Positions 2,415 to 21,593 of a stretch of 36,725 nt of DNA are shown here, piece after piece (within the stretch, counting starts at the first letter, position 1; the number at the start of each line of letters is the position of its first letter). A program made the position numbers and the translations under genes. This DNA comes from Verrucomicrobiota bacterium (GTDB taxonomy: Bacteria > Verrucomicrobiota > Verrucomicrobiia > Chthoniobacterales > Terrimicrobiaceae): contig VFJO01000268.1 of assembly GCA_009886045.1 (NCBI GenBank), forward strand, positions 1 through 36,725, in the 5' to 3' direction. The notes below the pieces were generated by a model. It saw only the letters and a program-made list of their open reading frames with translations. It made no database searches and was not told where the DNA came from.

Positions 2415-3296
2415 TTATTTCAGAAGCCGTCGCAGATACGCACCGTAACTCGATTTGCCGAGGCGGGTGATCTGGGCTTGCAGGCCGGCTTGGTCGATCC
2501 ATTCATTTCGCAGGGCGATTTCTTCAAGGCATGCGATTTTGAGGCCCTGACGACGCTCGATCACGCTGACGAACTCGGCGGCTTCGAGGAGCGATTCGTG
2601 TGTGCCGGTGTCGAGCCATGCCGTGCCTCGGCCGAGGAGTTCGACTTGGAGTTTGCCCTCCTCAAGGTAAATCCGGTTCAGGTCGGTGATCTCGAGTTCC
2701 CCGCGCGCGGAGGGCTTCAAATCGCTGGCCAGAGCGACGACCCGATCGTCGTAAAAATAAAGCCCCGGAACGGCAAAGTTCGACTTTGGCTTTGCAGGCT
2801 TTTCTTCAATCGAGAGCACTCGTCCATCAGGAGCGAATTCCACCACCCCGTAGGCTGTGGGGTCTGCGACATGATAGCCAAAAATCGTGGCCCCCTCGGG
2901 CTGGGCGTCTGCACTCTCGATGGCCTCGACAAAATTTTGCCCATAAAAAATATTATCACCGAGAACGAGGGCGGACGGGGCTTTTCCAACGAAGTCCGCA
3001 CCGATGTGGAAGGCCTGTGCAAGCCCCTCGGGACGCGGCTGTGCAGCATAACTCAGGGAAATGCCAAACTGGCTGCCGTCCCCCAGTAACCGCTGAAAAA
3101 GCGGCAAATCCTCCGGCGTCGAAATGAGCAGAATCTCGCGAATCCCAGCCAACATGAGCACGGAGAGCGGATAGTAAACCATCGGCTTGTCATACACGGG
3201 CATGAGTTGCTTGCTCACCGCAATCGTGAGCGGATACAGCCGCGTGCCGGATCCCCCGGCGAGAATGATGCCTTTGCGTGGTATAGGATTTTGCAT
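2415..3296 (-). CDS. rfbA: Glucose-1-phosphate thymidylyltransferase RmlA/RfbA
   Basis: Catalyses dTTP + glucose-1-phosphate to dTDP-glucose + PPi, the first step of dTDP-L-rhamnose and related dTDP-sugar synthesis, in the cytoplasm. The 293-residue length matches the family. The N-terminal nucleotidyltransferase signature [16 protein letters not shown] (about residues 9-24) is followed by [17 protein letters not shown], the LGDNIF motif and [10 protein letters not shown], all standard for RmlA. The start ATG at 3296 places the signature where expected. It stands alone: rfbB, rfbC and rfbD are not in the window. Its product could feed the envelope glycan genes near 14-19 kb, though nothing links them physically. 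No terminator was recognised after it. Confidence 0.95.
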
Positions 3297-3404
3297 GTCG
3301 ATAATGAAGTAGGGAATGGGTAAAGATAGAATCCAGAAAGCGAAGTTTCAGTTTCATAAAGATTTGTCTATTGGGTGACAAGCTCGGTTCAGCTGAATCT
3401 TGTT

Positions 3405-3459
3405 TAAGATAAAATCTTATTGAATTGCACAGATTTTTCAAATAATGACTTTTTAGTCA
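3405..3459 (+). promoter_or_regulatory. Two small inverted repeats in the leader of the 3475 gene
   Basis: TAAGAT-AAA-ATCTTA (3405-3419) and TGACT-TTTT-AGTCA (3446-3459) are perfect inverted repeats in the A+T-rich spacer before the gene starting at 3475. The second ends 15 bases before the ATG, where a ribosome site would lie, and no Shine-Dalgarno sequence is seen. They could be operators or RNA hairpins affecting translation. A+T richness makes short palindromes likely by chance. Confidence 0.3.
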
Positions 3460-3474
3460 CTCATCATTCCTTCC

Positions 3475-5430
3475 ATGAAAATTGCCTGCTTTTTGTCTTG
3501 TTTGTTTGTTCTACCGGTTCTCCATGCGCAACAGGAACCAATTTCTCAATTGAGCTTACCTGGGAGCACTGCACCAAGCCCTATAATGAATCAACCAGTA
3601 GTTATTTCTACTTTTGAAAATGTGGAAATGGAGCGCCTTCGTATAGCAGAGGAAAGTGCTAAAGCAGAAAGAGACGAGCTTGATTTTCAAAAACAGGTTG
3701 CCTCTATCCAAAAAAAACTTGCAGAAGCCTCTGCAAGCACGATAGTTCCAGAAAGCCTTCCGACCGATTACAGGTCTTTCTTAAGTGCAAAGGCGGGTGA
3801 TATTCAAAAAAGCGCCGAGTATTATGCGGAACTAAAATCAGTGCTGAACGATCTTTTGCCGAACAGTCCTTACAAAGCCAGAACAACTTCGGACTCATCA
3901 AATCCTCTTCGGGCCTCAGAAAAATTGGCCAAACTATCAAATTATCCAGAGGATGGTGACATTTCCCGCACTATTTCTGGCCAGATTTCTTCATTGAGCG
4001 GTGGGCGAGTAGATGATCAACGTCGGCAATTGGAAATAAACCGCGAACTTCAGCGTCTTACCGCTGAGAGAAAGCGTCTTGAGTGGAATCTTAAAATGTC
4101 CTACAGCCCAAATTTGGTTGATGGAAAAACATCTTCCACTGAGGATGAGCGACAATTTGTTCGTCAACAGATTGATGATGTGAAAGCAGAAGTAAAGCGT
4201 TGCGAAGATGAAAAAAAATCTCTTTCCCATCTTGTCACAACAGAGACTCGCAAGTTTCAATTTCAGCAGTTCATAATTGAGTTAGCTTTACAGCAGAGAT
4301 ATATACATTCTCTTATTGCTTGTGGTTTTTACCGTTCCTCTTTTAAGGGGGGAGATCTGAACCTTAACAAAGATGCTTATCCTTCGGGCCGCCCTGCTCA
4401 GGGTAGTGGCAGTGAGAATACTCCTTCTGTTCAATCTGCTGGCGGCGCACCAACTCCACTGCCCGTTATATCTACGATTACTGGAATGGAAGCTTTTCTT
4501 CAAAATCGCATCCGCGATTCCATTCAGGAAAGGGAATCCATCGACAATATGCTCCTCGAAAACCAACTCGGCGCCGCCGAGAGTCTTCTCCGCAAAATGG
4601 TGCTTACAGCCAAATATCAACCCGAACTCCAAACTATATCATTTCAAAGTCGCCAGACCATATTACAAAGCGGTCGAAAATTGCGTCAAATTTCAGATGC
4701 CGTTAATGCAAAGGATTACAATGAAATTCTGAAATTGGTTGATTCAATCGAAGCAAATGAACCTCTTGCTGGGATGGCCGATCTCAAGTCTTTTGCTAAT
4801 GAGCATCCTCGGAAGGCTTTTCACTGGGCCCGTCAAGCGGAACTTGCAATGAAAGCGGGTGATAAAAAAACTATGTCCTCCCTTATGGATATTGCAATTC
4901 GTAGAGCACCGTTGGATCAGGAAGTTGCGCAAAAAATTCAATCTATTCAGGAAAATGCGCAAAGTAACAATGATCTCTTAGTGGAGTTAAAGAAAATCGT
5001 TTCGGCCGGCGATTATCGCACTTCCTTCGAAAGAATGAATGAATTTGTTCCACTTGCGCAGTCGGCAAATACAGATTCCAAATTGAAAGATGATTACGAG
5101 AAACTTATCGAACGTGAAAAATCACTTCGAGTAGCGATTGAAAAAACTGATTCTCTTGAAAGTAAAGGCCTCATGCCTGAAGCGTGGATCGAGTTAAATA
5201 CTCTGCCCCAAGCTATCGTAAATGATGTTCGTATTTTAGAGCGCAAGAATCGAATTTCAGTTGAATGCCCAAAATTTATTAAAGCTTATCACAAAGCAAC
5301 AAATCATGAGCGTGAGAATCAGTCTGCTAAAGCCTTAGCTTGGTATCTTAATGCCCTTGTCGAATCACCAAGCAATAACGCGATTATTAGCAAAATCAAC
5401 TTGTTAGGTGGGGACATCCTTAAAAACTAA
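3475..5430 (+). CDS. Exported coiled-coil/TPR-like protein, unknown function
   Basis: A 651-residue protein that I do not recognise. It starts with a clear signal peptide (MKIACFLSCLFVLPVLHA, cleavage likely after residue 18), so it is exported. Two charged heptad-like regions, around residues 45-90 and 190-260, look like coiled coils. A low-complexity linker rich in Ser, Gly and Pro falls near 305-330. The C-terminal half is all-helical, with TPR-like segments (for example AFHWARQAELAMKAGDKK and AKALAWYLNALVESPSN). The gene is distinctly A+T-rich, with many AAA, GAA and ATT codons, unlike rfbA before it and the genes after 5868. The next gene begins five bases after its stop, so the two form a unit. 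A periplasmic or outer-membrane-associated scaffold is a guess. Confidence 0.8.
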   Translation: MKIACFLSCLFVLPVLHAQQEPISQLSLPGSTAPSPIMNQPVVISTFENVEMERLRIAEESAKAERDELDFQKQVASIQKKLAEASASTIVPESLPTDYRSFLSAKAGDIQKSAEYYAELKSVLNDLLPNSPYKARTTSDSSNPLRASEKLAKLSNYPEDGDISRTISGQISSLSGGRVDDQRRQLEINRELQRLTAERKRLEWNLKMSYSPNLVDGKTSSTEDERQFVRQQIDDVKAEVKRCEDEKKSLSHLVTTETRKFQFQQFIIELALQQRYIHSLIACGFYRSSFKGGDLNLNKDAYPSGRPAQGSGSENTPSVQSAGGAPTPLPVISTITGMEAFLQNRIRDSIQERESIDNMLLENQLGAAESLLRKMVLTAKYQPELQTISFQSRQTILQSGRKLRQISDAVNAKDYNEILKLVDSIEANEPLAGMADLKSFANEHPRKAFHWARQAELAMKAGDKKTMSSLMDIAIRRAPLDQEVAQKIQSIQENAQSNNDLLVELKKIVSAGDYRTSFERMNEFVPLAQSANTDSKLKDDYEKLIEREKSLRVAIEKTDSLESKGLMPEAWIELNTLPQAIVNDVRILERKNRISVECPKFIKAYHKATNHERENQSAKALAWYLNALVESPSNNAIISKINLLGGDILKN

Positions 5431-5435
5431 TACCC

Positions 5436-5828
5436 ATGGCACGCACAAAAAAATTCCTACTTGGAAAAAATTACATATTTCTGTTAGTCATTGGGCTAAC
5501 AGGTTTAATTTGTTTTTTTATGTTTAATTTGGACTTATCACAGAGGTTTTCCCAGCTTCCTGAATTTCCTGTGGAAAATTATCTGGAAAAAAACAGTATC
5601 ATTGGTAGAGAGGATTTTAGATTAGAAGGAAAAATAGAAAACATTCTGTTTAGATCGGACGACGGCAAGACTTTTTTAGTGTCTGTAAAACCTGTTAATT
5701 CGGATTACTTACTTCCCGTCGTAATTTCTTCGCAAAAAAAATCTATTCAGCGCGAGCAGATTCTAATCATGAAACTTCACACAGATAGCAGTGAATTAAT
5801 AAAATGCGAGGACTACGATTCGAAATAA
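5436..5828 (+). CDS. Small single-pass membrane protein, unknown function
   Basis: 130 residues: a basic N-terminus (MARTKKFLLGKN), one strong transmembrane helix (YIFLLVIGLTGLICFFMF, about residues 13-31), then about 95 residues that should lie in the periplasm. The soluble part has alternating beta-like stretches (EGKIENILFRSDDGKTFLVSV) and no known motif. It follows the 651-residue exported protein by five bases and shares its A+T-rich composition, so the pair are probably cotranscribed and may act together at the envelope. The segment EGKIENI...LVSVKPV could be a small OB-like or beta-barrel fold, but that is speculation. Confidence 0.75.
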   Translation: MARTKKFLLGKNYIFLLVIGLTGLICFFMFNLDLSQRFSQLPEFPVENYLEKNSIIGREDFRLEGKIENILFRSDDGKTFLVSVKPVNSDYLLPVVISSQKKSIQREQILIMKLHTDSSELIKCEDYDSK

Positions 5829-5867
5829 TTTTTGAGACTTCTAAAGTTTGCTTGTTTTCAGGATCAG

Positions 5868-6518
5868 CTAAGGTAGTGCAAGCGCAGTGTCATCCACCGG
5901 AGCGACAGATCCATTGAAAAACCAAGCCAGGCGCTTGGGGGTGTGGACGGGTTTGGAAGGTGTGTTTGCCGCCCATGAGGCGCCTTTGACGCGGGGATGG
6001 AGGGTGTCGGCGTCGGAGAATCCCCAGGCTTGTGCTGGGATGGCTGCAAGTTTGAGGGGCTGGCTGGCTGGAGATGTGGCCAGATTTCCCCAGGGGACGA
6101 GTGTGTGGTCGGCGTCCCGGATGCTCATATTCACAACGAAGGTTCTGGCGGAATCAAGAAACGATGTGCTCACGGTCTTGCGGTAGGCGGGCGGGACGAA
6201 GAGGGGTTCGACTTTTGGCGTGGTGGGAGTGGGAATGCCGAGATATGAAGCCAACTCACGCACGAACCGTCCGCTGCGCGCAGGGTCAAATTGCGCCATT
6301 TGCCCGGGCCAGAGCGGGCCGGGGAGCTTGCCGTCGTTGTCGGCAGCGAAAAGTGTGATGCCTGTCCCGATCTGCCTCATGTTAGAGATGGCCCTGGAGC
6401 GGTCGGAGGAGGCTCCAAGTTTTGAGAGGCCGCCCAGCGAGAGCGCTGCAAGAATGGCGATCACGGCCAAGACAACGAGCAACTCCACGAGTGTGAAGCC
6501 TCCGTGCAGCGTTCTCAC
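5868..6518 (-). CDS. Type II secretion/type IV pilin-like protein (pseudopilin N-terminus)
   Basis: 216 residues with a classical class III signal. A short leader ends in Gly7, followed by FTLVELLVVLAVIAILAAL with Glu at position +5 of the mature protein, the substrate pattern of prepilin peptidase PilD/GspO. The rest (SNMRQIGTGITLFAADNDGKLPGP and onward) matches the xcpT/pseudopilin-like proteins that are abundant in Verrucomicrobiota and Planctomycetota. These are usually scattered singly and of unknown role, not parts of a full secretion operon. Its ATG at 6518 overlaps the stop of the sugar dehydrogenase (ATGA), implying translational coupling. No pilin assembly genes are in the window. 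Confidence 0.88.
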   Translation of the reverse strand: MRTLHGGFTLVELLVVLAVIAILAALSLGGLSKLGASSDRSRAISNMRQIGTGITLFAADNDGKLPGPLWPGQMAQFDPARSGRFVRELASYLGIPTPTTPKVEPLFVPPAYRKTVSTSFLDSARTFVVNMSIRDADHTLVPWGNLATSPASQPLKLAAIPAQAWGFSDADTLHPRVKGASWAANTPSKPVHTPKRLAWFFNGSVAPVDDTALALP

Positions 6519-13553: not shown

Positions 13554-13625
13554 TGGGCAGTGAGGGGATCGAACCCCCGACCAATAGTGTGTAAAACTAC
13601 CGCTCTACCGCTGAGCTAACTGCCC
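13554..13625 (-). tRNA. tRNA-Val (anticodon UAC)
   Basis: The reverse strand folds into a full cloverleaf: acceptor GGGCAGT paired with ACTGCCC and discriminator A, D-arm GCTC/GAGC, anticodon stem GTAGT/ACTAT closing the loop TTTACAC (anticodon TAC), and T-arm with GGTTCGATCC. The CCA end is not encoded. It lies convergent to the end of aspS. Confidence 0.95.
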
Positions 13626-13845: not shown

Positions 13846-15345
13846 ATGACTCCTAAATTGCCCAAAAGCTGGGATACCGCTCTGGCGATTCTGTTGCTAG
13901 TCGTAGCTTGGGCCTGCCTCTACCTGCCACATTTGCGAACGAATCCGGGCTGGTATGGTGACGAGACCCTGACTTTGATGATCGGAAAGTCCCTCTATGA
14001 GGGGCAGGGCGCTGATCGCGCCATGCAAGCGACATTTTGGCATCCGAGTTACGCCTATCAGCCGGGTTACGCTTGGGCGGTTGGGCTGGCTTCGGTGGGA
14101 ACGGGCGGTGATATCTTGGGCGGTCGCGCGCTGAATACACTGATTGCGCTATCTATTGCATTGTGCCTGTATCTTTTCGGCATCAAGATTTTTGGAAAGT
14201 CTCCGGCCCTTCTCTCAGCACTGATTTTCCTCTCCTACGAACAATCTGTGGTGCATTTTCGATGGATTTATTCGCACAATGCCGTTGCACTGGGATTTGT
14301 CATCGCAGTTTTATTTTTAATTCGCAAAGCCTCAGTGCGAAGCGATCTGGCGATTGGCTTTGGTTTGACCATCGCAGCCTTGAGCCATCCGCTTTTTATC
14401 CATGGATCCATTGCAGCTTGGTTATGTCGTATCAAGCGACCGCTCTCTTGGCTTCGAATGGCGTTTTTTCCGACATTGGCCATCATAGCTCTGACGCTAT
14501 GGACATGGACGCGACTCACCAACAAAAACTGGCTTGCTGAGGATTTTTCAAGTTTGGGGCAGTTCTACGCTCAATTCAGCAAGGATAATGGCTCTGGGCT
14601 CCAGTCCCTGAAAAATGTTTTCTTCTTTTATTCGCAGGACTTTTTTCACTTAGGAGCCTTTGTTTGCGCCTTGATCTGCTGTTGGAGACGATTTCGTGTC
14701 ATTCCACTTTTTCTAGCGGTTGTCTCTGGGCTACTGCTTCAAAATCGGCAAAATCTCACGGTTTTTTATTATCAGGCCGTTGTTTTTCTTCCCATACTGG
14801 CACTCGCTTATGCGGGAGCTTTGAAGCTTTTGCTTGTTTATCTGCGGGCGATTGCAGGCCGCTCTTCTCGAGTTGCCGCGCTTGTAGCTTTTATCATTCC
14901 CGCCATTCTTTTTGGTAGTTCTTTTCCCAAGTCGTTCAATAGCAGCATAACGCCTCGCAATCAATTTTGGGTCACACAGAATCCCGCTGAGGTGGAGACC
15001 GCAGCCGTATGGATCAACTCCCATGTTTCGCAGACAGACCTTGTCGTATGCCACCAGAATATCGGTTGGCTTCTCAATTGCCGCACAACGGACTTCATGC
15101 AGGCCACAGCGTGGAGTGGTAGACCGACTTTTACTTTTGAAGTGCTTCCCGCAAAAGAAAGGTTTTTATTTCCTGCTGACATTTCCTCTGCGAAATATGT
15201 TGTTATTGGAGACATCGACCAACGCTGGACATTTGGGCAACCAAATCTTGGTTGGATTTTAGAAAAACTCGAGAATGAAAAATGGCCTGTAAAATGGCAG
15301 GGCGACAACTACTTGATCGTTAAAAATCCAGTGATATTGGACTGA
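13846..15345 (+). CDS. GT-C-fold membrane glycosyltransferase (ArnT/PMT-like)
   Basis: A 499-residue integral membrane protein. After a first helix (TALAILLLVVAWACLYLPH) the first periplasmic loop carries WYGDE at about residues 37-41, the acidic motif at which GT-C enzymes (ArnT, PMT/Alg9-like) bind the polyprenyl-phosphate sugar donor. About ten further hydrophobic segments follow to residue ~365, then a soluble C-terminal domain (~130 residues). The enzyme should transfer a sugar from a lipid-phosphate carrier to a glycan, lipid or protein on the periplasmic side. It is the first of three closely spaced genes; the fusion protein two genes on has a domain that could make its lipid-linked donor. 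Acceptor and sugar are unknown. Confidence 0.82.
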   Translation: MTPKLPKSWDTALAILLLVVAWACLYLPHLRTNPGWYGDETLTLMIGKSLYEGQGADRAMQATFWHPSYAYQPGYAWAVGLASVGTGGDILGGRALNTLIALSIALCLYLFGIKIFGKSPALLSALIFLSYEQSVVHFRWIYSHNAVALGFVIAVLFLIRKASVRSDLAIGFGLTIAALSHPLFIHGSIAAWLCRIKRPLSWLRMAFFPTLAIIALTLWTWTRLTNKNWLAEDFSSLGQFYAQFSKDNGSGLQSLKNVFFFYSQDFFHLGAFVCALICCWRRFRVIPLFLAVVSGLLLQNRQNLTVFYYQAVVFLPILALAYAGALKLLLVYLRAIAGRSSRVAALVAFIIPAILFGSSFPKSFNSSITPRNQFWVTQNPAEVETAAVWINSHVSQTDLVVCHQNIGWLLNCRTTDFMQATAWSGRPTFTFEVLPAKERFLFPADISSAKYVVIGDIDQRWTFGQPNLGWILEKLENEKWPVKWQGDNYLIVKNPVILD

Positions 15346-15353
15346 CATATAAG

Positions 15354-16607
15354 ATGCATTATCAAGAAATTACATCATGTCGCCTCTGCGATAGCTCCAG
15401 ATTGGAAAAGGTTCTGCACCTTGGAAATCAAAAACTCACGGGTGTCTTTCCTCGCACTCTGGATGATGACTTAATTTCTGGTCCTTTGGAACTTGTGCGA
15501 TGTGTTCCCGATGGCGAACTATCCTGTGGCTTGCTTCAACTTCGCCATTCCTACCCACAAGCTGCGATGTATGGGGAAAATTACGGCTATCGGTCTGGCC
15601 TGAATCAATCGATGGTGAGGCACTTGGAAGGAAAGACCAAGCGTCTTTTAAATCTTGTGCATCCCTCGGAAGGAAGTCTGCTGGTAGATATCGGCAGCAA
15701 TGACGGCACTTTGCTGAACTCTTACCCAAAGAATTTCCGGCGTGCAGGTATCGACCCAATTGCCAAAAAATTCTCCCGCTTTTACGATCCCTCAATTGAA
15801 ATTGTGCCCGACTTTTTCTCGGCAGAGACATGGAATCGGAATCTCGGACAGGGCAAGGCCGCTGTTATCACCTCGGTTGCGATGTTTTATGATCTGGAAC
15901 GACCGATCGAGTTCGTTGAAGAAATCGCAGCACATCTGGCTCCGGAAGGCGTCTGGCATTTTGAACAAAGCTACATGCCGCTCATGCTTAAGAACATGGC
16001 TTATGACACCATCTGCCACGAACATATTGAATACTACGCCCTGCGCCAGATTCATTGGGCGCTTCGCAAGTGTGGCTTGAAGATCATAGCCTTAGAATCC
16101 AGCGATGTGAATGGTGGTAGCCTTGCCGTTACGGCGGCCCTGTCGAACTCTTGCTACCCGGAAGCATCAGAGATGGTGCACTCCCTTCTCAATCAAGAAA
16201 AAGCACAAGGATTGGATGAAATGACACCGTTTTTTGAATTTCGGGATAGTGTTTTCCGTCACAGAGATGCTTTAAAAGCCGCCATCAAAGTTTTTCAAGA
16301 TTCTGGATTGAAAGTCCTTGGATACGGTGCATCGACAAAGGGGAATGTGATCCTGCAGTTTTGTGAGTTCACGAAAGTAGATATTGCGATGATTGGAGAG
16401 GTCAACCCCGATAAATTCGGCGCAGTGACACCGGGACCACATATTCCTATTGTGTCAGAGCAAGTTATGCACAATGAAAAGCCTGATATCCTGCTTGTGC
16501 TTCCCTGGCACTTCCGTGAATCAATCATCGAACGCGAGCACGATTTTATCCAACGCGGCGGCCGATTGCTTTTTCCCCTACCCCAAATCGAATTGTTTCC
16601 TGCTTGA
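15354..16607 (+). CDS. SAM-dependent sugar C-methyltransferase-like protein
   Basis: 417 residues with the three-part layout of NDP-hexose C-methyltransferases (TylCIII/CloU type). An N-terminal zinc-binding domain has Cys9, Cys12, Cys50 and Cys58. A Rossmann methyltransferase core has DIGSNDGTLL at residues 112-120 and the active-site phrase CHEHIEYYALRQ. A C-terminal domain has GYGASTKGN. Such enzymes add a branch methyl to a nucleotide-linked 4-keto hexose; close relatives act on other keto sugars. It starts eight bases after the GT-C gene, and its stop overlaps the next start (TTGA), so it is embedded in the glycan operon. It implies that the surface glycan contains a branched or otherwise modified deoxysugar. 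Confidence 0.88.
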   Translation: MHYQEITSCRLCDSSRLEKVLHLGNQKLTGVFPRTLDDDLISGPLELVRCVPDGELSCGLLQLRHSYPQAAMYGENYGYRSGLNQSMVRHLEGKTKRLLNLVHPSEGSLLVDIGSNDGTLLNSYPKNFRRAGIDPIAKKFSRFYDPSIEIVPDFFSAETWNRNLGQGKAAVITSVAMFYDLERPIEFVEEIAAHLAPEGVWHFEQSYMPLMLKNMAYDTICHEHIEYYALRQIHWALRKCGLKIIALESSDVNGGSLAVTAALSNSCYPEASEMVHSLLNQEKAQGLDEMTPFFEFRDSVFRHRDALKAAIKVFQDSGLKVLGYGASTKGNVILQFCEFTKVDIAMIGEVNPDKFGAVTPGPHIPIVSEQVMHNEKPDILLVLPWHFRESIIEREHDFIQRGGRLLFPLPQIELFPA

Positions 16608-18019
16608 AGACCTTAGTTCTCATTCCCACTTTTAACGAGAGGGAAAACATCAGCCAACTTTTGACGCTCTTGGAGGCGGAGGCTTTGGATGTTGATGTGC
16701 TTTTTGTCGATGATGGCTCGCCCGACGGAACGGAACTCGAGATTAAACGCCTTGCTGAAATCAATCCACGGATTCATCTTCTGCAGAGAGGTGGCAAGTT
16801 TGGAATCGGCTCCGCGCACAGAGATGGTATTCAATGGGCCTACGCAAATCGCTTCGATCGACTTGTCACCATGGACTGCGACTTGACGCATTTGCCAGCA
16901 GACATCCCCTCACTCCTCACTGCTTTGACCGACTCGGATGTTGCTATTGGCACGAGATACCGATCCCCAAAAAGTTTGGAAGGATGGAATTGGAGGCGAA
17001 AATGCCTTACACGGACAGCTCATTTGCTCACCCGTTTTTTTCTCGGACTTCCCTATGACTGCACCGGCGCCTTTCGCGCCTACCGCTTGGATAAAATTTC
17101 GGAGGACCTTTTTAAAATAGTCCACTCGCCGAGCTACCCTTTTTTCTTCGAATCTCTCTTCATACTGCATCACAACGGATTTAAGATTTCTGAAATACCG
17201 ATCAGCCTCCCCCCTCGCACATATGGCAGTTCTAAAATGCCTCCTGCGGAGCCATTTCGCGGCATAAACCACCTTTGTAGAATGGCGCTCGACCGAATCC
17301 TGCTTCCCGAGAGATTCGGATGCCCAAAACTTCAGCTCGCTCCCAATCCCAACCTTGCTCCAAGTGATGGATGGAACGCCTACTGGGAAAGGTCCAAGGA
17401 GTCTGGGAACCTCTTTTATAAATCTATTGCAACAATTTATCGACGAGCAGTTATTGCTCCTCGATTAACTAGAGAAATCCATAATTTGTTTCACCAAGGC
17501 AACGCCGTGCTTCATGCTGGCTCCGGGAGCGGACATGTCGATAGGTCTATTCAATCTTTTATAAAAATCACTGCCGTAGATTCCTCTCTGCAAGCCCTTG
17601 ATATCTACCGCCGCTGCGTGCCACTTGCAAGCGCGGCAGTTCACGCCTCAGTATTCGAGTTACCATTTGAAAGCAATGCATTTGATGGAGCTTATCATCT
17701 TGGTGTCATCGAGCATTTCGGCCCACTGGAAATCGGCGAATTCCTGCGAGAACTTCATCGCGTTATCAAACCCGGCGGGCGTCTTCTGATTTTTTGGCCG
17801 CACCAAAGAGCCACAAGCGTTTTCGTGCTAAAAATCTGGCACCACATTGCAGGAAAAGGCGCAGCACCTCTGCATCCGCCTGAAATTTCGCTTGCTAAAG
17901 ACAAAAATTCCGTGGCGAAAATCCTTAAATCTTCAGGTTTCCAGATGGATTCCTACTCATTTGGCATACGGGACTTCTGGATTCAGGCAGTCATTCAGGC
18001 GACTCGAGTTGACGATTAA
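16604..18019 (+). CDS. GT2 glycosyltransferase (DPM1-like) fused to SAM methyltransferase
   Basis: A 471-residue two-domain protein. Residues 1-240 form a GT-A glycosyltransferase like polyprenyl-phosphate mannose/glucose synthases: LIPTFNERENI at the start, VDDGSPDGT at 35-43, DCD at 91-93, DCTGAFRAY at 152-160. It lacks C-terminal membrane helices. Residues ~300-470 form a class I methyltransferase (HAGSGSG at 304-310, ELPFESNAFDGAYHLGVIEHF, RVIKPGGRLL). The start is TTG 16604, chosen because it overlaps the preceding stop (TTGA) and places IPTF normally; no in-frame ATG precedes it. The GT half may load a sugar onto polyprenyl phosphate for the GT-C enzyme of the operon while the other half methylates the glycan; this coupling is inference. 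The 3' end overlaps the opposing dehydratase-like gene by 29 bases. Confidence 0.88.
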   Translation: MKTLVLIPTFNERENISQLLTLLEAEALDVDVLFVDDGSPDGTELEIKRLAEINPRIHLLQRGGKFGIGSAHRDGIQWAYANRFDRLVTMDCDLTHLPADIPSLLTALTDSDVAIGTRYRSPKSLEGWNWRRKCLTRTAHLLTRFFLGLPYDCTGAFRAYRLDKISEDLFKIVHSPSYPFFFESLFILHHNGFKISEIPISLPPRTYGSSKMPPAEPFRGINHLCRMALDRILLPERFGCPKLQLAPNPNLAPSDGWNAYWERSKESGNLFYKSIATIYRRAVIAPRLTREIHNLFHQGNAVLHAGSGSGHVDRSIQSFIKITAVDSSLQALDIYRRCVPLASAAVHASVFELPFESNAFDGAYHLGVIEHFGPLEIGEFLRELHRVIKPGGRLLIFWPHQRATSVFVLKIWHHIAGKGAAPLHPPEISLAKDKNSVAKILKSSGFQMDSYSFGIRDFWIQAVIQATRVDD

Positions 18020-18941
18020 TTTCGATTTTCACCATGTCTCCGACCCAATCCTCAAAATTTTGTTTGGGTTCCCACCCGAGGTCTTGCCGCGCCTTCTCGA
18101 TATTCCCGACTCGTGGCAGAGGAGTATCAACTCGAAAAAGAGATTGATCCTGAACAATATAATCTCGGAAATTTAACCCAACGCTTCCAAAGGCAACCTT
18201 ACAAAAGTCCTCAACACTTCGCCCGATGCCGGAGGCAAAAACATAGTTGCCAGGACAATCTGCCTCCAAACTCAAGCGAAACCCTCTCGCAAAATCCGAA
18301 GCATGAGTCCAGTCCCTCACCGCCTGAAGATTGCCCATTTTGAGATCAGACTTCTTTCCGTTTACAATAGAAGCGACACCTTCCGCGATCCTCTTTGAAA
18401 CAAAATCCGCACGACGCAAATGCGACTCGTGATTGTATAAAATTCCAGTCACGCCAAAAACACCCTTGGTCTCGCGGAGGTAGTCTACCAGATGCTGTCC
18501 TGCTAATTTTGCAAAAGCATAGGGATGCATTGGAGTGGGACTTGTACACTCATCCTGCGGTGTGAGGCGAGGCCTGCCAAAAATTTCGCTCGAACCCGCA
18601 AAGAAAAATCGTGTTTTAGGCGAGCGCTCCACGATCCATCTCAAGAAAATCAGCACTACATCCACAGACATTTTGAACACATCTCTCTCAAATTGGTCCG
18701 TATCCTCTAGCATGCTCGGGCAAGCTAAGTGGTAGATTTCGTCTGGCCGAGAACCATCTAAAATGTTCCAAATACCGGCTTGATCCAGTCCGTGAAGTTG
18801 AAAGTCCCCGCAACGACTCGAAGAGCGAAAAACCTTCCTGCCAGAAGCTTCCAATTCCTTGCCAAGCCAGTAACCCGTTTGTCCTCCTGCGCCCGTGATG
18901 AGCGAATTAAACTGATTATGAAAGGAATGCGCTGATGGCAT
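17991..18941 (-). CDS. NAD-dependent sugar epimerase/dehydratase (GDP-mannose 4,6-dehydratase-like)
   Basis: 316 residues of the extended SDR family. The N-terminal Rossmann motif is SLITGAGGQTGYWLGKEL (GxxGxxG); later come IYHLACPS, FFFAGSSEIFG (catalytic Ser region), the HPYAFAKLAGQH Tyr-Lys pair, and MGNLQAVRDWTHASDFARG, which closely follows Gmd enzymes. The likely reaction is 4,6-dehydration of an NDP-hexose to a 4-keto-6-deoxy sugar, the kind of substrate the neighbouring C-methyltransferase would use. The N-terminus is more divergent than true Gmd (usual GITGQDG), so the nucleotide sugar is uncertain. ATG 18941 is preferred to a TTG at 18986, which has no ribosome site. It runs convergent with the glycan operon, overlapping by 29 bases. 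Confidence 0.85.
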   Translation of the reverse strand: MPSAHSFHNQFNSLITGAGGQTGYWLGKELEASGRKVFRSSSRCGDFQLHGLDQAGIWNILDGSRPDEIYHLACPSMLEDTDQFERDVFKMSVDVVLIFLRWIVERSPKTRFFFAGSSEIFGRPRLTPQDECTSPTPMHPYAFAKLAGQHLVDYLRETKGVFGVTGILYNHESHLRRADFVSKRIAEGVASIVNGKKSDLKMGNLQAVRDWTHASDFARGFRLSLEADCPGNYVFASGIGRSVEDFCKVAFGSVGLNFRDYIVQDQSLFRVDTPLPRVGNIEKARQDLGWEPKQNFEDWVGDMVKIEINRQLESPE

Positions 18942-19013
18942 TTGAAATCTAATTTTTTTACGGAGCTCGCGCCTGAAGGTATCCAAATATTTTACTACAG
19001 ACTGGAAAAACCC

Positions 19014-19604
19014 TCACCTCTCGCACGGCCCCGGCACATGCACCCAGGCCATGCCTGCAGCTTGGGCTGCCTCGATGCCGATGGGGCTGTCCTCGAAGAC
19101 CACGCAGTCTTCAGGCGCGACGGACATGAGTTTTGCTGCGAGCAGAAATGGGTCGGGGTGAGGCTTCCCGTGTTTGTAGTCTTCCGCGCAGACGATGGCT
19201 TGGAACAAGTGGCGGATTCCCAGTACGTCGAGTGTGGTTTCGACCAACTCGCGGTGACCGCCGGAAGCCACGGAAAGCGGTACGGTGCCGTGCATGGACT
19301 TTACGATCTCCATCACCTCGGGCACGGGAACGACTTCAGGGATGAGTCCGAGGTAGTATTGCTCCTTGCGGTGTACCGTTTCATCCACATCCAGCGTCAG
19401 GCCGTATTTTTCATTCAGCAGTCCGACGATCACGGTCGTGGGACGCCCCCCCCATGCGTAAAAGAGCTCCTCGGGATACTGGCCGCCAAAATCTGCCATG
19501 GCCATGGACCAAGCGCGGTAGTGCAACGGCATGTTGTCGGCGATGGTTCCGTCGCAATCAAAAATGTACCCGCCAAATGCGCGGTTCGGTATGTCGAGTT
19601 TCAA
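19014..19604 (-). CDS. HAD-superfamily (subfamily IA) phosphatase, beta-PGM/YqaB-like
   Basis: 196 residues with all four HAD motifs: YIFDCDGTIADN (nucleophile Asp16, acid Asp18), VASGG (motif II), the Lys in HGKPHPDPF (motif III) and VVFEDSPIGIEAA (motif IV). A helical cap lies between motifs I and II. It resembles fructose-1-phosphatase YqaB and beta-phosphoglucomutase-type enzymes acting on small sugar phosphates. The start is TTG 19604, supported by AGGGGA six bases upstream; there is no nearby in-frame ATG. It is downstream of tRNA-Arg on the same strand. The substrate cannot be fixed from sequence. Confidence 0.9.
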   Translation of the reverse strand: MKLDIPNRAFGGYIFDCDGTIADNMPLHYRAWSMAMADFGGQYPEELFYAWGGRPTTVIVGLLNEKYGLTLDVDETVHRKEQYYLGLIPEVVPVPEVMEIVKSMHGTVPLSVASGGHRELVETTLDVLGIRHLFQAIVCAEDYKHGKPHPDPFLLAAKLMSVAPEDCVVFEDSPIGIEAAQAAGMAWVHVPGPCER

Positions 19605-19633: not shown

Positions 19634-19706
19634 TGTCCCCAGGTGGAGTCGAACCACCATCTGAGCTTTAGGAGAGCCCTGCTCTATCCACTTGAGCTAT
19701 GAGGAC
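19634..19706 (-). tRNA. tRNA-Arg (anticodon CCU)
   Basis: On the reverse strand GTCCTCA pairs with TGGGGAC in the acceptor (one T-G pair), with discriminator A. The D-arm, an anticodon stem GGGCT/AGCTC around loop CTCCTAA (anticodon CCT), a short variable loop and a T-arm with GGTTCGACTCC complete the cloverleaf. CCA is not encoded. It reads AGG codons. Confidence 0.95.
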
Positions 19707-20107
19707 GTTGAATGAAAGGTGCTTGCAAAATAATTTGCTGCATTTTTGCGATAGGATTGGCAGAAGATAAGGCAAACTTTTTTACAACTCGATTGTTTAC
19801 GTGTGTTCTACACTCTTCGCAAGCTGAAAAAGTCGTGTTGCTGCCGCCGACCCCGTACTGCTCTTTGCTGAGGCCTTGAGTCTCGGGGACGTTCGAGCGC
19901 GGAGACAACGACTTTTCGCCTTTGATAGGCGTGATATCGCGGGCGATGGGCGGCAGCATTTCATCTCGTATGGCGGTGATCCCTTTTGCCTGAATTGGAA
20001 TAATAAACTGCCGAATTTATTTTTATTTTTATTTTGAGCTGCTTTTTAGGCTTGTTTGTTTCAGAAATAGATTTAGTCAGTGAGGCAGCAAAGAATCCAC
20101 GTATTAA
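19707..20107. other. Unexplained 400-base intergenic region
   Basis: Between tRNA-Arg and the gene at 20108. The outer parts are A+T-rich, but 19815-19990 is G+C-rich and contains nested inverted repeats. On the minus strand an open frame without a start upstream of 19959 has codon use like real genes for about 45 codons, then degrades. It could be a structured RNA, a decayed gene fragment, or both. Confidence 0.4.
19827..19916. ncRNA. Candidate structured RNA, family not recognised
   Basis: AAAAAGTCGTGTTG at 19827-19840 pairs with CAACGACTTTT at 19906-19916 (one bulge). Inside, CCCCG (19851-19855) can pair with CGGGG (19884-19888); alternatively GTCTC (19880-19884) pairs with GAGAC (19902-19906). 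It does not show the hallmark sequences of tmRNA, SRP RNA or RNase P RNA. Strand is undetermined. Confidence 0.25.
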
Positions 20108-20755
20108 ATGAGCAAAGATTTTTTACTCTTAGTCGCGATCGGCGTTTTAGGCTTCTTTGCGTGGAAGCACTTTTCAAAACCCAAAGTGCTCACGCCGCAG
20201 GATCAAATTGAGCAGTTGATTACCACAGGAAGTGCTTCAGCCACTGACTTGGCGGAGATCACCGACAAGTTTCCAGACCTCGTTTCTAGGGAGCTTCGCA
20301 ACCGAAGAATCACTGTAACGGGCGTTTTAAAGAGAGCCTTTGTAAAAGGTGTGGGATCGCATGATTTGATTCTCGAGCTAGAAGGATCCCGCAAACGCAA
20401 GATCACCTTCACCTCGGATGTGAACGGCTACGCGCGCGCCAACAATCTGCTCGGCGTGTCCAATCAAAAATTCCAAAAACATGGCCGCGATATTTTGACC
20501 TACGAATCCTCTTCGAAGTCGACTCAAGGCTCATCTGGGGGAGGAGTGATTCAAAAACTGCTTGGTCATATGGCACCTTCTTTGCCGAAGTCAGTGTCAG
20601 CGGGCGATTCACCAGCCGGTGCCGAAAAACCAAAGTCTATGACTCAAATGGTGGTGTTCAGGGAATCCGATACCGTGACATTGGACGGCATCTTTCAACA
20701 GATCACAAATACCGTCATCCATATCGAATGGCGCCCTTCCAGTAGCTCGTTGTGA
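20108..20755 (+). CDS. Membrane-anchored protein with OB-fold-like (tRNA_anti-like) segment
   Basis: 215 residues: an N-terminal transmembrane anchor (FLLLVAIGVLGFFAWKHF, residues 5-22), then a soluble domain. The section RRITVTGVLKRAFVKGVGSHDLILELEG resembles the first strands of the tRNA_anti-like OB-fold domain, in which a short protein of unknown role carries 'V.V.G.V' followed by a predicted barrel. A Ser/Gly-rich linker leads to a C-terminal beta-rich part (MVVFRESDTVTLDGIFQQITNTVIHIEW). It is not in an obvious operon; tatC converges from the other side 34 bases away. The fold guess is weak and the function unknown; probably faces the periplasm. Confidence 0.75.
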   Translation: MSKDFLLLVAIGVLGFFAWKHFSKPKVLTPQDQIEQLITTGSASATDLAEITDKFPDLVSRELRNRRITVTGVLKRAFVKGVGSHDLILELEGSRKRKITFTSDVNGYARANNLLGVSNQKFQKHGRDILTYESSSKSTQGSSGGGVIQKLLGHMAPSLPKSVSAGDSPAGAEKPKSMTQMVVFRESDTVTLDGIFQQITNTVIHIEWRPSSSSL

Positions 20756-20789
20756 GATTTTCAAGTATAAGGGCGCCAAAGCGGCGCGA

Positions 20790-21593
20790 TCACTGGGCAC
20801 CTGCGGGATTTTTACCCCTCATCAGCCACGCGATGCCGATGCAGATCTCATAAAGAATATACATCGGCCCGCCCATGAGGAACAGAGTGAGGATGTCGGA
20901 TGTTGGGGTAATGAGAGCTGCTAGGATAAAGATGACCACGACTGCGAAGGCGCGGGTGCGGCTGAGAAGCGCGTGGTCAACGACGCCGAGTTTGACCAGA
21001 AGCAGCACGGCCAGTGGCAATTCAAAGGCAAGGCCAAAGGAAATGACGAATTGCGTGGCGAACGAGTAGTATTCGCGCACGGTCCAAGTCGGTTGCCAAT
21101 TCATCGCTTGGGCGTCCTTGAAAAAAAACTCCAAGGTTTGCGGCAGGACGACGAAGTAGCTGAACGCCGCGCCGCCGAGGAAAAGCCCCGACCCCAGCGC
21201 AGCAGCGGGGAAGATCATGGTCTTCTCTTTGGTAGTGAGGGCGGGAAGAATGAACTCCGCCAAAAAAATCACGATCAAAGGAAAGGAGAGGACCAAGCCA
21301 GCATAAAAGGAAAGCTCGAGCGAGATGGTGAAGGAATCCGCCACGCCGAGGGACTGCAGATTCGCCGCACGCTGGGGGTCCACTGCCACGAGTGGGCGTT
21401 GCACGACGGATGCCAACTCGGTGCGGAAGACAAAAGAAAGGAGCATCCCGGCGACCAGTACCGCTGCGATTTTGATGATCGTGAAGCGCAAATCCTCGAT
21501 GTGCGAGAGGAATGGCTTCGACTCATCACCACGATTCCGAAAAGCAAAAAACTTTTCGAGCCATACAGATGAAGGTTTACCCGAGTTGTTCAC
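20790..21593 (-). CDS. tatC: Sec-independent (twin-arginine) translocase subunit TatC
   Basis: An integral membrane protein of the Tat pathway that recognises twin-arginine signal peptides. After a cytoplasmic N-terminus it has FLSHIEDLRFTIIK, the usual TatC entry to helix 1, then six transmembrane helices, including the conserved Glu in FGLAFELPLAVLL and the run AFAVVVIFILAALITPTSD before the last helices. Any start gives an overlap with argH; GTG 21593 (267 residues, near the usual ~250) overlaps argH by 17 bases and is preferred over a TTG at 21677. tatA/tatB are not in the window. Coupling to argH looks like a local operon rather than a functional link. Confidence 0.93.
   Translation of the reverse strand: MNNSGKPSSVWLEKFFAFRNRGDESKPFLSHIEDLRFTIIKIAAVLVAGMLLSFVFRTELASVVQRPLVAVDPQRAANLQSLGVADSFTISLELSFYAGLVLSFPLIVIFLAEFILPALTTKEKTMIFPAAALGSGLFLGGAAFSYFVVLPQTLEFFFKDAQAMNWQPTWTVREYYSFATQFVISFGLAFELPLAVLLLVKLGVVDHALLSRTRAFAVVVIFILAALITPTSDILTLFLMGGPMYILYEICIGIAWLMRGKNPAGAQ

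What the first reader, a model, noticed from the sequence alone, without database searches (positions are those of the whole stretch)
13846..18941. Glycan operon built around a GT2-methyltransferase fusion
A GT-C transferase, a zinc-containing C-methyltransferase and a fusion of a DPM1-like GT2 with a class I methyltransferase are coupled end to end (8-base gap, then a TTGA overlap), opposite a Gmd-like dehydratase. The parts form a plausible pathway: dehydratase makes a 4-keto sugar, the C-methyltransferase branches it, GT2 loads a polyprenyl phosphate, GT-C transfers it outside, and the fused methyltransferase modifies or caps the product. I do not recall this exact fusion with these partners as a described system.
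Basis: partly seen in the sequence, partly recalled or inferred. Interest (0 to 1): 0.55.

Follow-up and report, generated by a model that had tools for sequence, protein, structure and literature searches.

The report
Conserved cassette for lipid-carried methylated sugar
Four neighbouring genes look like a small assembly line that makes an unusual methylated sugar, loads it on a membrane lipid and attaches it outside the cell; the two-in-one enzyme at its centre is real and recurs, with mostly the same partners, in distantly related bacteria.

Summary
At 13846-18986 lie a GT-C transferase (AlphaFold model matches ArnT, Z 27.5), a TylCIII/TcaB9-like sugar C-methyltransferase (CMT), a one-frame fusion of a DPM1-like GT2 with a class I methyltransferase (MT), and an opposite-strand Gmd-family SDR. 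The fusion is no frameshift: I found 22 further GT2-MT loci (Verrucomicrobiota, Planctomycetota, Pseudomonadota); 18 of all 23 are fused, 5 are adjacent genes. CMT and SDR adjoin it in 17 of 23, ordered CMT, SDR, GT2-MT on one strand in 15. One locus fuses SDR-GT2-MT (797 aa). A large polytopic, GT-C-like protein lies within 2.8 kb in 21 of 23. I read this as a portable cassette making a polyprenyl-phosphate-linked, C-methylated, probably O-methylated deoxyhexose for GT-C transfer. The dehydratase step is doubtful: all 16 other intact cassette SDRs lack GMD's catalytic Glu, and this genome has a true gmd elsewhere, so the SDR is more likely the 4-ketoreductase; only the window's copy keeps Glu. 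In the closest same-genus relative found (AspS 94%, HAD 91% identical) the GT-C is 44% identical and the MT family absent, so the cassette looks swapped in. Chemistry is inferred; no text search found it described.

The parts
13846..15345 (+). GT-C fold transferase, 499 aa (predicted to transfer the sugar from polyprenyl phosphate outside the membrane)
   Evidence: AF2 pLDDT 91.4; Foldseek 30 hits at E<=0.001, by name all GT-C-type enzymes (ArnT, OST/PglB/AglB, ALG9/12, DPY19, Aft/Emb; that these are GT-C is recalled), ArnT TMq 0.64; ArnT Z 27.5 over 435 residues; D39-E40 invariant in 14 homologues; distant homologue L068 hits PMT_2 at 27.7 vs cut-off 26.1
15354..16607 (+). sugar 3-C-methyltransferase of the TylCIII/MtmC/TcaB9 family with N-terminal zinc-site cysteines, 417 aa
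   Evidence: Pfam Methyltransf_13/23/14; PDB 4rv9 E 9.8e-48, TcaB9 E about 1e-47; Cys and ICHEH motif in alignment
16604..18019 (+). fusion: DPM1-like GT2 (about residues 1-235) + class I SAM methyltransferase (about 255-471)
   Evidence: Pfam; archaeal dolichol-phosphate mannose synthase 5mlz E 2.6e-21; model pLDDT 80.7, pTM 0.53, GT2 part best matches DPMS/ArnC/GtrB, MT part small-molecule MTs including RebM and AtmM; 22 relatives
17991..18986 (-). Gmd-family extended SDR (start ATG 18941 likely); predicted GDP-4-keto-sugar reductase, dehydratase not excluded
   Evidence: GDP_Man_Dehyd 199.7 bits; gmd equivalog 168 of 415 bits; GSSE...YAFAK active-site residues kept; tree
13554..13625 (-). 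tRNA-Val (tac), left border of the cassette
   Evidence: ARAGORN; same tRNA beside a GT-C gene in G501
19014..19604 (-). HAD phosphatase (conserved border gene, not thought to be part of the pathway)
   Evidence: 91% identical in G501
19634..19706 (-). tRNA-Arg (cct), right border
   Evidence: beside the HAD gene in G472, G501, G125 and G609

Best explanation
A portable glycan cassette. (1, inferred) A housekeeping GMD elsewhere in the genome makes GDP-4-keto-6-deoxymannose. (2, inferred from family) The CMT adds a methyl branch at C3, which needs the 4-keto group. (3, inferred) The Gmd-family SDR reduces the 4-keto group, giving a GDP-6-deoxy-3-C-methylhexose (virenose-like). (4, inferred from family) The GT2 half moves the sugar to polyprenyl phosphate on the inner face. 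(5, inferred) The fused methyltransferase O-methylates that sugar on or near the carrier, before or after loading. (6, inferred from fold) After flipping by a flippase not coded in the cassette, the GT-C enzyme transfers it to a surface glycan, lipid or protein. Shown here: the gene set and its order recur, GT2 and MT are coupled everywhere the MT family was found, GT-C-like proteins adjoin, and the window's cassette was probably swapped into a locus where same-genus relatives hold only an unlike GT-C gene.
For: Recurrence: CMT and SDR at 17 of 23 GT2-MT loci, 15 of them CMT-SDR-GT2-MT on one strand. Rosetta-stone fusion SDR-GT2-MT, 797 aa, in L137. GT2 and MT fused in 18 of 23, adjacent in 5, at least 3 changes of state on the tree, so joint selection rather than one accident. 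MT family is discrete: hits E<=3e-75, 10 of 384 class genomes and 4 of 398 of the phylum of Bradyrhizobium genome G532. Polytopic protein within 2.8 kb in 21 of 23, within 150 bp in 16 of 23; control ORFs 10 of 39 and 1 of 39. GT-C fold. CMT nearest solved relatives are sugar 3-C-methyltransferases. SDR: GMD's catalytic Glu lost in 16 of 16 other intact cassettes while Ser and YxxxK stay and the NHES-type motif largely stays; true gmd present in the own genome. Xenologous swap: G501 AspS 94%, HAD 91%, GT-C 44% identity, MT family not found there.
Against: The window's own SDR keeps the Glu, is on a long branch and lies outside the CMT-GT2 order, so its role may differ from its relatives'. gmd is common anyway (108 of 141 class genomes), so gmd in 9 of the 11 complete-cassette genomes that were tested is no enrichment, and two lack one above cut-off (G525, G534). 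No flippase in the cassette. The MT's target is a guess: its structural neighbours are general small-molecule methyltransferases, and in L084, L086 and L091 no CMT or SDR is near. The neighbouring membrane proteins elsewhere have mostly no Pfam match (TPR repeats in L089, Alg9-like Glyco_transf_22 in one upstream neighbour in L086), so 'GT-C-like' there rests on hydropathy and a first-loop acidic motif.
Confidence: 0.6

Rival explanations
1. One reading: the window's SDR is the 4,6-dehydratase that opens the pathway (possibly bifunctional dehydratase/reductase, as reported for some GMDs), and the CMT itself or an enzyme elsewhere reduces the 4-keto group.
For: Window SDR has all four GMD active-site residues (Ser for Thr) and is closest to GMD 1rpn among solved structures (170 bits against 77 for the reductase 2pk3). 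PMC3539893 (passages) cites bifunctional GMDs and reported 4-ketoreductase activity of a TylCIII-type enzyme.
Against: 168 of 415 bits for the gmd equivalog, a true gmd elsewhere in the genome, membership of the GMD clade rejected (p 0.02), and the catalytic Glu lost in all 16 intact relatives.
Confidence: 0.22
2. The fused methyltransferase does not touch the sugar but caps or terminates the glycan, or modifies another molecule; the fusion only keeps it at the membrane.
For: The MT half shows no residue-level link to a given substrate class; Foldseek neighbours are mixed small-molecule MTs.
Against: GT-MT pairs that methylate the sugar just transferred exist elsewhere: fungal GT-MT gene pairs do 4-O-methylglucosylation (PMC8669486, passages). 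A chain cap would not need a one-to-one tie to the lipid-phosphate synthase.
Confidence: 0.2
3. The window's four genes are a chance assembly: a resident GT-C with unrelated horizontally acquired sugar genes that do not act together.
For: The window's order (GT-C, CMT, fusion, opposite SDR) was met nowhere else; its SDR is divergent and opposed; the GT-C family also stands without the cassette in same-genus genomes (L060, L067).
Against: The same four parts, GT-C of the same family included, lie together in five Verrucomicrobia subdivision 6 type genomes (L081, L083, L085, L088, L090), with GT-C facing the fusion; CMT, GT-C and fusion are tightly spaced in the window.
Confidence: 0.1

Closest known systems
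Three-component GT-C glycosylation systems (polyprenyl-P-sugar synthase, flippase, GT-C; e.g. CsdC/CsdD/CflA in lactococci)
   Same: GT2-type polyprenyl-P-sugar synthase plus GT-C transferase acting outside (PMC10821137 passages)
   Different: Cassette carries its own sugar-branching genes and a methyltransferase fused to the synthase, and no flippase gene; the GT2 model shows no trans-membrane tail before the MT half
Virenose pathway proposed for Coxiella burnetii LPS (GMD, TylCIII-like C-methyltransferase, 4-ketoreductase or epimerase/reductase)
   Same: GMD-family and TylCIII-like enzymes together, GDP route to a 6-deoxy-3-C-methylhexose (PMC3539893 passages)
   Different: No GT2-MT fusion in the passages read of that in silico proposal; here the SDR lineage has mostly lost the GMD Glu
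DPM1 / dolichol-phosphate mannose synthase (5mlz), ArnC, GtrB
   Same: GT2 domain, E 2.6e-21 to 5mlz, top structural match 5mm1
   Different: C-terminal methyltransferase in place of membrane domain or nothing
TcaB9, MtmC, TylCIII sugar 3-C-methyltransferases
   Same: Full-length three-domain match
   Different: Partners point to a GDP-sugar and a cell-surface glycan rather than a TDP-sugar and antibiotic (inference); zinc-site cysteines lost in subdivision 6 relatives
ArnT / PMT family GT-C transferases
   Same: Fold, Z 27.5 to ArnT, and invariant DE pair
   Different: No family profile matches the window protein
Fungal glycosyltransferase-methyltransferase gene pairs
   Same: GT and MT tied together, MT acting on the sugar just added (PMC8669486 passages)
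   Different: Secondary-metabolite substrates in a fungus, no lipid carrier shown; their sequences were not compared here

Membership tests
DPM1-like polyprenyl-phosphate glycosyltransferase (GT2) | GT2 fold with paired Asp and DxD-type motif, relation to DPMS | tested here: met
   Pfam PF00535 83.2 bits; 5mlz E 2.6e-21; D36, D37, D91, D93 invariant in 11 fusions
DPM1-like polyprenyl-phosphate glycosyltransferase (GT2) | Transfers sugar from NDP-sugar to polyprenyl phosphate | not testable with these tools
   needs biochemistry
GT-C transferase | GT-C fold | tested here: met
   (ArnT Z 27.5, rmsd 3.9, 435 aligned)
GT-C transferase | Acidic DE/DD pair in first outer loop (motif recalled) | tested here: met
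   D39-E40 invariant in 14 homologues
GT-C transferase | Match to a GT-C Pfam model | tested here: not met
   0 families for the window protein; a distant homologue, L068, does match PMT_2. This lowers assignment to a named GT family, not to the fold
TylCIII/TcaB9 sugar C-methyltransferase | Zinc domain + SAM domain + Methyltransf_14 domain | tested here: met
   all over cut-off; full-length alignment to 4rv9
TylCIII/TcaB9 sugar C-methyltransferase | Acts on NDP-4-keto sugar at C3 | not testable with these tools
   inferred from homology
GDP-mannose 4,6-dehydratase (GMD) | Catalytic Thr/Ser, Glu, Tyr, Lys (residues as listed in PMC3539893) | tested here: met
   window GSSE and YAFAK; but 16 of 16 other intact cassette SDRs lack Glu
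GDP-mannose 4,6-dehydratase (GMD) | TIGR01472 equivalog cut-off 415 bits | tested here: not met
   168 bits; the genome's other copy scores 540.6
GDP-mannose 4,6-dehydratase (GMD) | Groups with true GMDs | tested here: not met
   GMD + window clade p-AU 0.02; cassette SDRs + window on one side of a 95/87 branch, long branch 2.81
Three-component GT-C glycosylation system | Und-P-sugar synthase and GT-C encoded together | tested here: met
   recurrence
Three-component GT-C glycosylation system | Flippase (GtrA or Wzx type) in the same locus | tested here: not met
   no such Pfam match among the four cassette proteins; a GtrA-like tail sits on another GT2 at G000 C171, read by eye

The most novel reading that the evidence does not exclude
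The GT2-MT protein is a bifunctional enzyme that loads a branched 6-deoxy sugar on polyprenyl phosphate and O-methylates it on the lipid carrier, with SDR, GT2 and MT forming one channelled complex (in one species one polypeptide): a lipid-linked donor of doubly methylated sugar, carried between phyla as a cassette that plugs into whatever GT-C enzyme the host has.
Probability: 0.4. Interest if true: 0.62.

Novelty: new variant of a known kind. Interest (0 to 1): 0.48.

Why it matters
If true, it gives a genomic signature for C- and O-methylated surface sugars in Verrucomicrobiota, Planctomycetota and Pseudomonadota, names a testable bifunctional enzyme, and shows how a donor-making cassette can be swapped while the acceptor-side GT-C changes. 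A named strain, Bradyrhizobium lablabi SZCCT0009, carries the split version (L087), so the prediction can be checked by glycan analysis.

Tried and rejected
Frameshift or assembly artefact as source of the fusion: rejected by 17 other one-frame fusions. Enrichment of gmd in cassette genomes as support: 9 of the 11 complete-cassette genomes against 108 of 141 in the class, not enriched, dropped as evidence. GMD identity of the window SDR: rejected at equivalog level and by the AU test, with the caution of a long branch. First SDR tree held several long outliers; for I removed seven rows (L096-L099, L108, L109, L119) and added five cassette SDRs; rows of L114, L115 and L118 had already dropped out as copies of cassette SDRs. 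L138's SDR frame is broken and was left out of trees and of the 16. Two weak hits (L092, L093, E 3e-6) were dropped before counting. Polytopic-neighbour count: the script used 7 or more hydropathy segments; for L081, L083, L085 and L088 I used the neighbouring GT-C homologue seen by tblastn instead; the control used 6 or more, on ORFs of the window and seven same-genus stretches only. Viral contigs, plasmids and phages: no relative of the MT domain. GT-C tree: the window's place is unresolved, so it neither proves nor excludes xenology by itself. Literature: virenose/C-methyltransferase, lipid-carrier GT and fusion terms listed no paper that, from titles and abstract starts, describes this fusion or cassette; only open-licence PMC is held.
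Full report
Observation. All four genes are present as described. GT-C 13846-15345 and CMT 15354-16607 are 8 bases apart; the CMT stop and the TTG start of the fusion share TTGA at 16604-16607; the SDR gene is opposite and overlaps the fusion's end by 29 bases. The group lies between tRNA-Val and an HAD gene with tRNA-Arg, at G+C 0.47-0.49 against 0.55-0.59 in most nearby kilobases (20001-21000 is also 0.486).

Domains. The GT-C protein matches no Pfam or NCBIfam model and no PDB sequence, yet its AlphaFold model (pLDDT 91.4, 14-row alignment) matches ArnT (Foldseek TMq 0.64; Z 27.5, rmsd 3.9, 435 residues); the other Foldseek hits at E<=0.001 are also GT-C-type enzymes by name. D39-E40 is invariant across 14 homologues. 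The CMT is a full-length relative of mycarose 3-C-methyltransferase 4rv9 and TcaB9. The fusion has a DPM1-like GT2 (5mlz) and a Methyltransf_11 domain; its model (pLDDT 80.7, pTM 0.53) gives no confident placing of the halves against each other, and the MT half matches small-molecule methyltransferases including RebM and AtmM.

The fusion recurs. In 387 genomes of the phylum, 142 hold GT2 homologues at E<=1e-20, but besides the window's own no match listed ran through the MT half. Searches for the MT half found 18 loci in a pattern scan of 84,980 species genomes (16 kept), 10 of 384 class genomes and 4 of 398 genomes of the phylum of Bradyrhizobium genome G532, the last two all at E<=3e-75. 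Without duplicates that makes 23 loci, the window included. In 18 GT2 and MT are one frame; in 5 (L076, L077, L078, L087, L089) they are adjacent genes with touching or overlapping ends. At least 3 changes between the states are needed on the tree. L137 continues the frame into the SDR: SDR-GT2-MT, 797 aa.

Partners. CMT and SDR lie beside GT2-MT in 17 of 23: 15 in the order CMT, SDR, GT2-MT on one strand (L077-L081, L083, L085, L087-L090, L137-L139, L144; two of them with the CMT cut by the contig end, one with the SDR frame broken), plus L143 and the window with a different layout. L142 has the SDR alone; L084, L086 and L091 have neither in the 1.8-6.9 kb upstream seen; L076 and L082 begin inside the GT2 and cannot tell. 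A polytopic protein of 350 aa or more is within 2.8 kb in 21 of 23 and within 150 bp in 16 of 23, against 10 of 39 and 1 of 39 control ORFs. The window's own GT-C family adjoins the fusion in the five subdivision 6 type genomes (L081, L083, L085, L088, L090); elsewhere the membrane protein belongs to other, mostly unnamed families.

The SDR. GMD needs Thr, Glu, Tyr and Lys (listed for GMD in PMC3539893, passages read). In 16 intact cassette SDRs other than the window's the Glu is His (11), Leu (3) or Arg (2), while the Ser and YxxxK are kept. These are unlikely to be ordinary 4,6-dehydratases; a 4-ketoreductase is the natural partner of a C-methyltransferase. The window copy keeps the Glu, on a long branch between the cassette SDRs and GMDs; placing it among true GMDs is rejected (p 0.02). 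The genome has a true gmd at C171 (540.6 bits). gmd is over cut-off in 11 of 16 other MT-family genomes, but also in 108 of 141 class genomes.

Origin. In G501, the closest same-genus genome found, AspS is 94% and HAD 91% identical, but its GT-C, beside the same tRNA-Val, is 44% identical, reversed and in two pieces; the MT family was not found there. In G472 a reversed GT-C lies directly at HAD/tRNA-Arg. None of the six same-genus genomes shown has the MT family. AspS lies about 114 kb from HAD in G501, so the left border was rearranged. I infer that the cassette, with its own GT-C, replaced or joined a resident GT-C at this site.

Mechanism. Shown: gene set, fusion, linkage, fold, loss of Glu in relatives. 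Inferred: GMD elsewhere to GDP-4-keto-6-deoxymannose; C3 methylation; 4-keto reduction; loading on polyprenyl phosphate; O-methylation of the sugar by the fused half; GT-C transfer outside. The O-methylation step rests on the constant tie of MT to GT2 and on precedents such as fungal GT-MT gene pairs (PMC8669486, passages).

Known or new. Each enzyme belongs to, or has the fold of, a known family, and the whole resembles a three-component GT-C system (PMC10821137, passages) joined to a virenose-like branch pathway (PMC3539893). The DPM1-type GT2 fused to a methyltransferase, and its recurring cassette, were not found described in the searches listed under Tried and rejected. I file it as a new variant of a known kind.

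Noticed in passing
L137:6891-9284: One 797-aa frame joins the Gmd-family SDR, the DPM1-like GT2 and the methyltransferase.
   Followed up: partly
window 3475-5427 +: 651-aa frame without any Pfam or NCBIfam match in a second low-G+C stretch (3001-6000, 0.40-0.46).
   Followed up: no
L067:8066-9728 (G501): GT-C gene beside tRNA-Val is split over two frames: broken gene or sequencing error.
   Followed up: no
L138:7520-8450: Cassette SDR frame is broken although CMT and GT2-MT on either side are intact.
   Followed up: partly
L068-L075 (f88 genomes): A distant GT-C relative is paired with a stand-alone DPM1-like GT2; in most of these loci that have the upstream DNA, another GT2, an epimerase-like gene and a second membrane protein precede it.
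   Followed up: no
L120:7195-11913 (own genome C171): gmd lies next to a GT2, a membrane protein and a GT2 with a GtrA-like tail: a second lipid-linked glycan locus (read by eye).
   Followed up: no
L083:7096-8367, L088, L090: CMTs of the subdivision 6 type cassettes have lost most of the zinc-site cysteines that the window copy keeps.
   Followed up: no
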